Shown piece by piece: positions 12,601 through 18,600 of a DNA stretch of 53,044 nucleotides. Origin of the DNA: an uncultured Rhodospirillales bacterium (GTDB taxonomy: Bacteria; Pseudomonadota; Alphaproteobacteria; Reyranellales; Reyranellaceae); assembly GCA_945957125.1 (NCBI GenBank), contig CAMFJT010000011.1, positions 1-53,044 on the forward strand, read 5' to 3'. The translations under genes and the position numbers were made by a program. The notes under the pieces are model-generated. The model was given only the letters and a program-made list of their open reading frames with translations, was not told the DNA's origin and did no database searches. Every line of letters begins with the position of its first letter. The stretch's first letter is position 1.

Positions 12601-15600
12601 GCAACATGTCGTGCAGGCCGATCAGGCGGTTGAGCGCGTCCTCCAACCGGCCGACGTCGCGCTCGCCGGGCAGCGCGAACTCCCAATAGACGTGGCACGA
12701 GCCGCCGAGCGCGAACTCCGAGGTCCGCCCCAGCCAGTAGGCGAGCTGGATGTCGGTCAGTGGGAACGGCTCGTAGCGCGACTCGGGCGCGAGCGTCATC
12801 GCGGCGGGGCGCGCCGTGTCGTCGACCGGCAGGCGTGCGGCGAGATCGGCGAGCCGGCGATGGGCGAGCAGGTCGGCGGGCTCGGGCGCGGCGCCCAGCG
12901 CGCGCGCCAGCCGGCCGCGCAGCTCGAAGGCGAGCAGCGAATCGAGGCCCAGCCGCGGCAGCACAGCGTCTTCACGCAGCTCGGCCGCCGGGATTTGCAG
13001 CACCTCGGCGGCGGCCTCGCGCAGCACGGCGAGGCGGCGATCCTCGCCCGGCTTCTCCGGTGGCTTCTCGACGGCGACCGGCGCTTCGTCCTCGCCCAGC
13101 CAGTAGCGGCGGCGGGCGAAAGGACGCGGCGCGACGAGGTCGAGGCGGCGGGCGCCGCGCGGCGCGGGCGCGACGAAGTCGACGCCGTCGACGAAAAGCT
13201 GCGCGGCGGCGAGCAGCTTGGCCCGGCCGGTCGCGGCCTCGCTTGCCTCGCTGCAGAGCTGCGCGGCGAGCGCGGCGAAGACGGCGCGCGTCTCGACATC
13301 GCGGCGCTTCGCCTCCGCGAGACACCAGCCGGACGGTGCGGCGCCCGACGCGGCGGCCTGCAACTGGCGGCCCAGGCTCGCGACATCGGCGGCGACGAAG
13401 GCGGCGCGCCACGGCAGGTCGGCCGGAGCGGCGTTGCAGGTGAAGGCGAGATCGGCGAGATCGACCGGCACCTGCTCCAGCCGCGCGGCCAGCGCGCCGA
13501 GCTGCTCGCGCAAGGCGGCCTCGCTGCGGCCGGCGAACAGGAGCAGCGCGCCGGCCGGCGGGACGCTCGCGCGCGGGATGGCGCTGGCGGGCGCCTGCTC
13601 GACCAGCATGAAGCCGTTGCTGCCGTTGATCGCGAAGCAATTGATCGCGGCGCGGCGCGGTTCGCCGGACGGCGCGGTCCACGGCGCGAGCCGCGTGTTG
13701 ACGGCGAGCCGGGTCGCGGCCAGCTCGGGCAGCGCCTCGCCATCGGCGTGGAGCGACGGCGCCAGCGCGCCGTGGCGGAGCTGCAGCACGACCTTGAGCA
13801 GACCCGCCATGCCGGCGGCGGCGAGGCTGTGGCCGATATTGCTCTTCACCGAGCCGAGCGGCAGGGCGTGTTGCGCGCCGAACACCTCGGCCAGCGCGGC
13901 GATCTCGGCGGAGTCGCCGGCCTTCGTGCCGACGCCGTGGCCCTCGATATAGGAGATGCTGTCGGGCAGCAGGCCGGACTCGGCGAACGCGGCGCGCGCC
14001 TGCGCGACCTGGGCGGAAACCGAGGGCGCGCTCATGCCGTTGGTCGCGCCGTTCTGGCTGACCGAGGCCGCGCGCAGCACGGCATGGATCGTGTCCCCGG
14101 CCGCGACAGCATCCGACAGGCGCTTGAGCACCACGACGCCGGCGCCTTCCGACAGGCCGAGCCCCTGCCCGCCGGCGGCGAAGCTCCGGCAGCGGCCGTC
14201 GGCCGACAGGATCTCCGAGCGGTCGGCCATCAGCGCCAGCAGCGGCGTGCTCTGGACCGCGACCGCGCCGGCCAGTGCGACTTCGACCTCGCCGCGGCGC
14301 AGCGCGTCGATCGCCAGCTTGATCGCGGCGACGGCGGAGGCGCAGCCCATGTCGACGGTGAGCGCGGGCCCCTTGAGGTCGAACACGTAGCCCAGCCGCG
14401 CCGCCAGCGAGGACGGCATCTGCGCCAGCAGCGAGGGCCGGTCGGGCGGCACGCCGAGGATCGCCGCCTTGTGGCTGTAGTCCGAGGCGCTGGCGCCGAC
14501 GAACACGCCGGTGCGCGCCGACGACGGCGCATCGGCGCGGATGCCGGCGTCGGCCAGCGCGAGCCATGCCTGCTCCAGCAGCACGCGCTGCTGCGGGTCC
14601 ATCAGCAGCGCCTCGCGCGGCGAGATGCCGAACAGCGCGGCGTCGAAGCTCTCGGCCTCGGCGAGGAAGCCGCCGGCGCGATGGCGCGCCTCGCCGATGC
14701 CGGCGACACCGCTGGCCGCGAACTCACGCGCCGACCAGCGCCCGGCCGGCACCTCGCCGACCGCATCGGCGCCGTCGCGTAACAGCCGCCAGAACGCGCC
14801 GAGATCGGCCGCGCCGGGGAAGCACCCCGCCATGCCGACGATGGCGACGGGTTCATGCTCTTTCCCTCCCCCGTCTTCGGGTGGGCGTTTTGGCTGCGAA
14901 GCAGCCAAAAGCGCCTTGGTGGCGCGGTAATCCGCGACGGAGGGGGGCGGGAGTCGAGGGGCCGCAAGAGCATGACCCTCTCCGTCCGCGTAAGACGCGG
15001 CCACCTCCCCCGAAGACGGGGGAGGGGAAACGAAGGGCTCGATGCCGATCGCGACCTTGCCGATATGGCGGGCGCGGGAGAGGAAGCGCAGCGCGGTCGC
15101 GGCCTCCTCGAAGCGGAAGCAACGGACCGGCAGCGGCGCCAGCCCGCCGGGCACGAAGCGCTTCATCAGCGCGGCCAGCTCGGCGCCGACCGCGTTGGGC
15201 TGGCGGTCGATCTCACCCAACAGGTCGTACACGACGTAGCCGATGCCGGGATGGCGCCGCGCGATCTCGCCGGCCGGGCGGATGTCGGTCTTGCCGATCT
15301 CGACGAACACGCCGCCGGGACGGACCAGCGCGAGTCCGGCATCGGTCATCGCGCCGGCGAGGCAGTTCAGCACGACGTCGACACCCGCGCCGCCGGTCGC
15401 CTGCCGCACCGCGTCGGCGAACGACACGCTGCGCGAATCGGCGACGCAGGCGATGCCGAGCGCCTGCAGGTGCGCGCGCTTCTCCGGGCTTCCCGCGGTC
15501 GCCAGCACCATGGCGCCGGCCGCGCGCGCGATCTGCAGCGCGGCGAGGCCGACGCCGCCCGACGCGGCATGGACCAGCACCGTCTTGCCCGGCCCGAGCC

Positions 15601-18600
15601 GGGCGATGCGCTCCAGCGTCGCCGCCGCGGTGAGGAAGACGATCGGCAGGCCGGCGGCCTCGGCGAAAGAGACTTGCGCCGGCTTGGGCGTGACCAGGGC
15701 GGCGCGCGTCACGACATGGCGCGCGAGGCTTCCGACCTTGAGTCCGACGACCTCGTCGCCCGGCGACAGGCCGGCGACGCCCGGCCCCACCGCCGTCACG
15801 CGGCCGGCGAACTCCAGCCCGAGCGGCCGCGCCTCCGTTCCGATCCGGCCCAGCGCCTCCATCACGTCGCGGAAGTTGAGGCCGGCAGCGACCACCTCGA
15901 CCTCGACCTCGCCCGCGCCGGGTGCACGCCGCGCCTCGGCGTGGGCGGATAGCGACGAAAGATCGCCGCGCTCGGCGACATCCCACGCTTCGGTCGTCGG
16001 CTTGGGAGCGGCCGGCGCGCCTTCGCCGAGATAGCGCGCGAGGCGCAGCGGCGTGGCATGGTCGTCGATGACGTGCGCGGCGACCGGCCGGTCGAGCGCG
16101 ATGCTCAGCAGGCGCGCGACATCGCCGGCTGCGAGCGAATCGACTCCGATGTCGGCGAAGCGCGCCTCGCGGTCGATGGTCGCCGGATCGGCGTCGATCG
16201 CCTCGGCCACAGCATGCAGCACGACGGGTAGCAGGTCCGGCGGCGGTGTCTCGACCTGCTGGGAGCGCGGCTCTCCAGAGCCGCTCATGCGTTGCGACTC
16301 CCCGGAGGCAGAGCCGCTCTGGAGAGTCGCGCTCCCCGCAAGCATGACGCTGCGGTCCTCGCCACCGGAGATGTCGACGGCGGCGAACTCCTCACGCAAG
16401 ACCTCCTCCCAGCGACGCGCAGACAACAACGCCCCCGGCCCGGGGCGGGCGGTGTCCGTGCGCCACCAGTCCGACAGCAGGCCGAGAGTCAGCGCCAGAG
16501 CATCGCGCAGGCGGGTCGGCTCGTCGAGCACAAGCGTGCCGTCGGCGGCAAGACGCGCCTTGATGTGCCGTACGCCGGCAGCCACGTCGGCCAGGGCATG
16601 CATCGCGTTCGCCGCGACGACGATATCGTACGGGCCCGCCGCATCGCCGGGTGGGACCGGCGCGGCGAGGTCGAGCCGTTCGAAGCGCACACCGGTCGCG
16701 GCAAGGCGCGCCCGCGCCGCTTCGAGCAATGCGGGCGAGCGGTCGGTGCAGACATAGTCGAAACGCCCGGAGAGCGGCGCCAGCGCGGCGAGCACCGCCT
16801 CGGTCGCGCGGCCCGTGCCGGCGCCGACCTCGAGGATGCGGACAGGGCGCCCGCGCGCGGCGGCGGCTTCGGCGACGGCGGCCGCCATCCGTTCCGTAGC
16901 GCGCCGGGCGTCGGCGTGGCCCGACAGCAGGCGCTCGACGGGCGCGATGTCGCCGGCCGGGAACAGCACGTCCTCCGCCGTCGTCTCGCCCGCGAGCACG
17001 GCAGGCAATGCCGCGACGGAACGCTCGACGATCGCCGCCAGCGCCGCCGCGTCGGGCGATTCGGCGTCGAGCGAGTCGCGCAGGGCGGATGCCGTAGCGG
17101 CGGCCTCGCGGCGCGAGACGCGGGCGCGCACCTGCTCGCCCTCGACCACGGCCAGGCCGTGGCGCGCGAGAATCTCGATCGCCGCGTCGAGCAGCGGCCG
17201 GTATCGCGGCAGCCTGAGGCAGCGTCGCACGATCTCGCCGCGCGCCAGGCCGGTGCCGATGGCGGAGAGCGCACCCGCACGCTCCAGCGCGACGAACGCA
17301 CCGTGCGCGGCGTAGGCGTCGAGCCGGTCGAACAGGTCGCCGGCCGGTGCGGGAACGGGCACGGACACGGGCACGATCGGCGCCGGCTCGAGCGCGGGCG
17401 CGGCGGGAACGAGATCGATCCAGTGACGCGGACCGTCGAACGGATAGAGCGGCAGCGAGGCCACGCGGTAAGCCGGCTGCAGCGCCGTCCAGTCGACCGC
17501 GACGCCGGCCTGCCAAAGACGGGCCAGCAGCGCGCGCGGCTCCTCCTCGCCCAAGGCGACGACGAGATCGGCCGGCGGCTCGGCCATGGCCACGACGCCG
17601 GCCCGCTCGGCCGAATGCCGCGCCAGGATCGGATAGTCCTTCGGCGCCGCGACGAGCGCGCGCGCGGCGGCGAGCGGCGCGAGGCGGAAAGCGGCGCTCT
17701 CGGCCTCGACCAGCGCGACGGCCTCGCCGTTCTCCAGCAGGCCGTCGGCGATCAGCCGGCCGAGTTCGCCCCACGCTTCGGGCGTCAGGTCGTGCGGCGC
17801 GGGCAGGCTCCAGCGCCGGCTGAGCCGCCAGTGGCAGGCCACGCAGCCGAGCAGGAACAGGCGGCGCTGCGTCTCCTCGCGCGGCGGCGCGGCGAGCCAC
17901 GCCTGCATGTCGCCGCGCGGACCGAGCGCGCGCTGCCAGTCGGCGAGATAGCCGCGATAGGTGAAGTTGCTGTGCGCCAGGTCGCGCGCGCGCTCGACCG
18001 CGCGGTCGGCCTCCTCCGCCGAGGCGACCAGCCCCTCGCGCAGCGCGGCGAGATAGACCGCGTCGAGCGCCCACGGCAGGTGCATGCGTCCCGCGGCCCG
18101 ATCGAATCGCGCCCTCTCTTCCTCTTCCCCTCCCCCGTCTTCGGGGGAGGTGGCGCGGTAATCCGCGACGGAGGGGTCATGGGCCACGGAATCGGTGCTG
18201 CCCATGACCCCTCCGTCCGCGTAAGACGCGGCCACCTCCCCCGAAGACGGGGGAGGGATTTCGATGGCGATCGGGCGGACGCCGGCGCGCTGCAGCAGGT
18301 CGAGAGAAGCCCCCTCCTCCAGGCGCACGAGAAGGCGCGGCGAGCCGGCGAGGCGCTCGGGCGCGGGCGGCTCCTGCGCGAGGAGGCGGCGCAGCTCGTC
18401 CTTGTCGGACACGACAGCGGCCCAGCGATGCTCCAAGGCCGCGCGGCCGAATGCGAGCGTGCCGAGGATGTCGGACAGCGGCAGCGCCGCGAACCCGGGC
18501 GACGCGGCGAACGCCCGCCACGCCAGCCACAGCGCGCGGAAGCTCTCGGGCGAGCGCGCCGAGAGCACGAACGGTAGATGCGGCGCGTCATCGGACGGCT

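What the first reader, a model, noticed from the sequence alone, without database searches (positions are those of the whole stretch)
14864..18257. Intergenic palindromic repeat translated twice, in the same frame, inside one megasynthase
Family-A elements at 14864-15027 and 18127-18257 have arms almost identical to an ordinary intergenic copy at 42782-42910. Both synthase copies keep the reading frame open and are read in the same frame (SSGEVAASYADG, then PSVADYRAT), although their central loops differ in length. Rickettsia RPE elements are the known precedent for palindromes that enter genes as coding inserts. Finding them in modular synthase linkers suggests that such elements may seed flexible inter-domain linkers, and may help shuffle modules by homology.
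Basis: partly seen in the sequence, partly recalled or inferred. Interest (0 to 1): 0.85.

Follow-up and report, generated by a model that had tools for sequence, protein, structure and literature searches.

The report
Palindromic repeats translated in synthase linkers
Short mobile-looking palindromes that normally sit between genes have settled, in frame, in the flexible joints of this bacterium's giant polyketide-making enzymes; such in-gene insertions were known elsewhere, but their concentration in these joints, where related enzymes carry different palindromes or none, makes the joints a natural record of what they tolerate.

Summary
Two ~130-163 bp family A palindromes (14864-15026, 18128-18257) are read in frame inside a 3416-aa PKS/NRPS (9611-19861, minus strand). 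The genome has at least 60 family A copies, nearly all intergenic. The same gene carries a third palindrome (family B, 16257-16339). A repeat census of 2.14 Mb found 342 repeat islands and 11 genuine in-gene, in-frame palindromes; 9 lie in four megasynthase genes, about 1.8% of the coding DNA (nominal binomial 9e-15).

Orthologues (61-80% identical) lack the inserts, and a second deposited contig has identical inserts. In a sister megasynthase, one ACP-KS linker holds a family C pair here, a family B pair in an 85% orthologue, a CGTC pair in a third genome and no palindrome in a fourth.

Best reading: resident REP/REPIN-like elements keep inserting, and survivors inside genes are the in-frame, stop-free ones in inter-domain linkers. 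Family C has an associated transposase (RAYT). The shared family A frame is the most often open and the only charge-neutral one, so a filter explains it. Module shuffling is not shown. In-gene REPs and Rickettsia RPEs are prior art: a new variant of a known kind.

The parts
9611..19861 (-). Host gene: PKS/NRPS hybrid, 3416 aa (KS, methyltransferase, ACP, ER, KS, ACP, condensation, adenylation, PCP); RhiE-like linkers and no AT domain, so trans-AT-like
14864..15026 (.). Family A palindrome, long form (163 nt), coding aa ~1612-1666, between the end of ER (1605) and the start of KS2 (1671)
14884..14915 (.). Nested 33-nt hairpin GGCGTTTTGGCTGC-GAA-GCAGCCAAAAGCGCC in the left arm; shared with a copy in the C205 synthase and one other copy (C60), with compensatory changes
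16257..16339 (.). Family B inverted REP pair (REPIN-like), coding aa ~1175-1202, between the methyltransferase and ACP
18128..18257 (.). Family A palindrome (130 nt), coding aa ~535-579, after KS1 and its RhiE-like linker
112..9213 (-). Neighbouring PKS gene, 3033 aa
4151..4270 (.). Family D palindrome (CGTC-like), in frame in a loop before the KR domain match of the neighbouring PKS
42782..42910 (.). Ordinary intergenic family A copy used as reference
26780..26862 (.). Intergenic family B pair
38326..38409 (.). Intergenic family B pair
9139..9212 (.). Family C REP pair at the 5' end of the neighbouring PKS
9461..9534 (.). Second family C pair, in the tandem duplicate of that region

Best explanation
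These are resident REP/REPIN-like palindromic repeats of the genome. They insert widely, and almost all surviving copies are intergenic. Inside genes, a copy survives only if it leaves the reading frame open and lies where extra, unstructured residues do little harm. Megasynthase inter-domain linkers meet this condition, so they have accumulated copies of at least five families (A, B, C, D, F), each now translated as linker. Shown: the repeats, their copy number, their in-frame position, empty-site orthologues, and different palindromes at the same linker in relatives. Inferred: mobilisation of families B and C by a RAYT transposase, near-neutrality of the inserts, and translation itself.
For: Family-agnostic census over 2.14 Mb: 342 islands, 11 genuine in-gene palindromes, 9 of them in megasynthases, while 1.13 Mb of stretches not chosen for family A gave 106 islands and one genuine in-gene case. 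All three inserts in the window gene are absent from orthologues wherever their contigs cover the site, and an identical contig carries them. At one ACP-KS linker: family C here, family B in an 85% orthologue, a CGTC pair in another, none in a fourth; more in-frame cases in L329, L336, L340. The CGTC pattern has 35+34 sites in the genome holding that copy. The family A frame used is open in 46 of 62 copies and is the only near-neutral one. A REP-associated tyrosine transposase gene is flanked by family C REPs.
Against: No proteomic or expression evidence. No transposase is tied to families A or D, and no target-site duplication was seen. About half of the sampled bases were chosen because they hold family A, so the binomial is nominal; it also ignores that linkers are more available in megasynthases. 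One element (family D in the neighbouring PKS) lies in a loop near KR rather than clearly between domains.
Confidence: 0.78

Rival explanations
1. The inserts are selected: they serve as useful spacers, or as RNA/DNA structures controlling the synthase (mRNA stability, translation pausing between domains), and were recruited for that.
For: Recurrent occupation of the same linker by different palindromes; strong conserved folds; concentration in one enzyme class.
Against: Orthologues have ordinary linkers without inserts at the three window sites, and one lacks a palindrome at the ACP-KS site; families and sequences are interchangeable; the element sequences look like their intergenic copies, with no sign of coding adaptation.
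Confidence: 0.12
2. The repeats act as recombination substrates that shuffle modules between synthases, and their presence reflects past exchanges.
For: Two synthases carry the long form of family A before a KS; the 5' end of the neighbouring PKS is tandemly duplicated together with a family C pair.
Against: The long-form copies differ in their centres, and A1 is no closer to the C205 copy (88%) than to the third copy (89%); the window gene is collinear with orthologues lacking the repeats.
Confidence: 0.06
3. Assembly or binning artefact.
For: The genome is a 432-contig assembly and repeats break contigs; two named MAGs carrying close copies have family B only on PKS contigs, which suggests mis-binning there.
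Against: A separately deposited contig has identical sequence through B and A1 and half of A2; frames are intact at every site; the same pattern is seen in genomes G087 and G089 with other repeats.
Confidence: 0.04

Closest known systems
Intragenic GTAG/CGTC REPs (Di Nocera et al. 2013, PMC3733652)
   Same: REP monomers and dimers inside coding regions, dimers encoding 20-30 and clusters up to 82 residues; the authors suggest they may be neutral in flexible linkers or loops
   Different: There, many are DNA-repair and RNA-modifying genes; the main text does not mention polyketide or peptide synthetases. Here in-gene copies concentrate in megasynthase linkers, with empty-site orthologues and swapped occupants
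Rickettsia palindromic elements (RPE)
   Same: ~150-bp palindromes inserted in frame in unrelated genes
   Different: In RPEs nearly half of the copies are in genes; here only about 3% of repeat islands are, and almost all of those in one enzyme class. Sequences were not compared
REPINs with RAYT transposases (PMC3116915)
   Same: Inverted REP pairs with variable spacer, possible clover fold, RAYT flanked by REPs (families B, C by resemblance; RAYT seen for C)
   Different: REPINs are described as extragenic; families A and D have no RAYT link here
Enterobacterial RU repeats in genes (Delihas 2007, PMC2759123)
   Same: 127-168 bp intergenic repeats also read as protein within genes
   Different: Different sequences and hosts; no enrichment in modular synthases in its abstract or section headings

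Membership tests
REPIN/RAYT system (families B and C) | Two inverted REPs with a variable spacer forming a hairpin | tested here: met
   28 BB pairs and 17 CC pairs among elements in the first ~1 Mb; sequences
REPIN/RAYT system (families B and C) | REP-associated tyrosine transposase in the genome, flanked by the REP | tested here: met
   NF047646 above cut-off; family C REPs on both sides of the gene in L068. Family B not seen beside it
REPIN/RAYT system (families B and C) | GTAG-type tetranucleotide at the REP foot | tested here: not met
   Foot reads TGGGAGC (B) or TGGGACC (C), so not a GTAG REP in the strict sense
REPIN/RAYT system applied to family A | Association with a RAYT | tested here: not met
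   No family A copy beside either Y1_Tnp match
CGTC REP super-family (elements in L326, L340) | CGTC tag, 8-9 bp stem starting AT, 4-5 nt loop | tested here: met
   CGTC-ATGGTCGGG-CTTG-ACCCGACCAT read by eye; criteria
CGTC REP super-family (family D in the window genome) | CGTC tag, 8-9 bp stem, 4-5 nt loop | tested here: inconclusive
   CGTC present, but stem and loop were not measured
Rickettsia palindromic elements | In-frame insertion of an intergenic palindrome in unrelated genes | tested here: met
Rickettsia palindromic elements | Sequence homology to an RPE family | not tested
   No RPE sequences were compared; works like an RPE, not filed as one
MITE | Target-site duplication and terminal repeats of a known transposon | tested here: inconclusive
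   No duplication seen by eye at the in-gene copies; native linkers too diverged to define the empty site exactly

The most novel reading that the evidence does not exclude
Mobile palindromes are a recurrent source of inter-domain linkers in trans-AT-like megasynthases: successive repeat families replace one another at the same joints, so linker length and sequence evolve by insertion rather than by point mutation, and the shared sequence may later act as a recombination seam.
Probability: 0.25. Interest if true: 0.8.

Novelty: new variant of a known kind. Interest (0 to 1): 0.6.

Why it matters
Linker choice is a main difficulty in engineering modular synthases. Here nature has run the experiment: unrelated peptides of about 23-55 residues have been placed at defined joints, with orthologues carrying other inserts or none. 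It is also a clear case of purifying selection shaping where repeats survive inside genes.

Tried and rejected
Rfam: no match in the window. Palindromes in the large PKS cluster of a same-genus genome: none of REPIN type. Sixteen family A-like hits with long open frames in other genomes of the genus: none clearly inside a gene by the codon model; G005:C119 is borderline at a gene end. AlphaFold of ER-insert-KS2 from five sequences: mean pLDDT 41, uninformative. ALSEVEG motif in the neighbouring PKS: not repeated in the sampled genome, dropped. One 25-nt in-gene island (C2) treated as weak and not counted. Literature searches for palindromic repeats in synthase linkers found nothing relevant by title and abstract.

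Full report
What was checked. The window is contig C11 of a 6.4 Mb, 432-contig assembly. The gene at 9611-19861 (minus) codes for a 3416-aa PKS/NRPS hybrid. Pfam places KS, methyltransferase, ACP, ER, KS, ACP, condensation, adenylation and PCP; it finds RhiE-like linkers but no acyltransferase domain, so the system is trans-AT-like.

The elements. Family A copies at 14864-15026 and 18128-18257 are about 130 nt plus, in the first, a nested 33-nt hairpin. They fold as a four-way structure: a long outer stem, two side hairpins and an inner stem with a variable centre. On 27 copies, 98.3% of pair cells are standard and compensatory changes exceed shuffles (7 cells against 0.8). A covariance model finds over 60 distinct loci in the genome. 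Both in-gene copies are read in the same frame, but their central regions are equal in length (51 nt); the difference is the nested hairpin. A third palindrome of another family (B, 16257-16339) lies in the same gene; family B has 157 forward and 158 reverse pattern sites in the genome against 0 for the reversed control.

Position in the protein. The inserts are at residues 535-579 (after the KS1-linker match ending at 495), 1175-1202 (between methyltransferase, ends 1127, and ACP) and 1612-1666 (between ER, ends 1605, and KS2, starts 1671).

Empty sites and artefact test. A deposited contig from another MAG (L245) is 100% identical over residues 562-1668 and carries half of A2, all of B and all of A1. 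Orthologues L246 (about 80%), L247 and L249 (about 55-63%) lack the inserts at all three sites and have unrelated linkers there; L248 starts within the contig's own edge and covers only the last site fully, and lacks it too. L245 is labelled Roseiarcus although it is identical to the window genome, and in that MAG and the Bauldia one family B occurs only on PKS contigs (that the G085 and G086 contigs are PKS rests). These contigs are probably mis-binned, or the cluster moved with its repeats; organism names should not be trusted.

Genome census. A codon-usage hidden Markov model trained on the genome itself was run with repeats masked. Over 2.14 Mb, 14-mers seen at least four times in intergenic DNA define 342 islands. 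Twelve lie in genes with the frame kept; one is a weak 25-nt match. Of the other eleven, nine are in megasynthases: family D in the neighbouring PKS, A-B-A in the window gene, B-C-D-A in a third synthase on contig C205, and F in a PKS on C174. The remaining two are a family A copy between the CoA-transferase III repeats of one protein and a family D copy in an unassigned gene on C17. Megasynthases are about 33 kb of 1.878 Mb coding DNA. The nominal binomial is 9e-15 for nine of eleven, and 8e-7 for family A alone genome-wide (three of four). About half of the sample was chosen around family A copies, so these figures are indicative. The 1.13 Mb taken without regard to family A held 106 islands and one genuine in-gene case.

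Same linker, different palindromes. In the C205 synthase the ACP-KS linker carries a family C pair. The 85% orthologue L325 has a family B pair there, L326 has a CGTC-type pair, and L327 has no palindrome. L325 has a different palindrome at the KS-methyltransferase linker, where C205 has family B, and a CGTC-like one at the methyltransferase-ACP linker. Other in-frame cases are L329 (two family B pairs), L336 and L340. The CGTC pattern has 35 forward and 34 reverse sites in the genome of L326, so it is resident there.

Why the same frame. Among 62 family A copies, the frame used in the synthases is open in 46, more than any other. It is also the only frame with near-zero mean net charge; the others are +3.5 to +9.6 per 40 residues. 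A filter on openness and charge is enough.

How they arrive. A REP-associated tyrosine transposase (NF047646 above cut-off) on contig C112 has family C REPs on both sides. That supports RAYT mobilisation for family C, and by resemblance B. No transposase is linked to A or D.

Comparison with what is known. Coding REPs inside genes, and the suggestion that they sit harmlessly in linkers, are published, as are RPEs and RU repeats. What appears new here, within the papers searched, is the concentration in megasynthase joints, with empty and re-occupied sites in orthologues. Inference, not shown: near-neutrality, translation, and any role in shuffling modules.

Noticed in passing
window 8981-9280 and 9303-9602: A 322-bp tandem duplication (97%) of the 5' end of the neighbouring PKS, including a family C pair, leaving an orphan KS N-terminal fragment.
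   Followed up: partly
window 22661-22891 and 26511-26741: A 231-nt direct repeat (94%) 3.85 kb apart.
   Followed up: no
L245 (G085) and G086 contigs: Family B occurs only on PKS contigs of these two named MAGs and L245 is identical to the window genome: probable mis-binning, or transfer of the cluster with its repeats.
   Followed up: partly
L121 (contig C133) 1658-1771: Family A palindrome in frame between the CoA-transferase family III repeats of one protein, the only non-synthase family A copy found inside a gene.
   Followed up: partly
L193 (contig C17) 735-835: Family D palindrome in frame in a gene with no Pfam match above threshold.
   Followed up: partly
window 14884-14915: Nested hairpin defines a long form of family A; two of its three known copies are in synthases.
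   Followed up: partly
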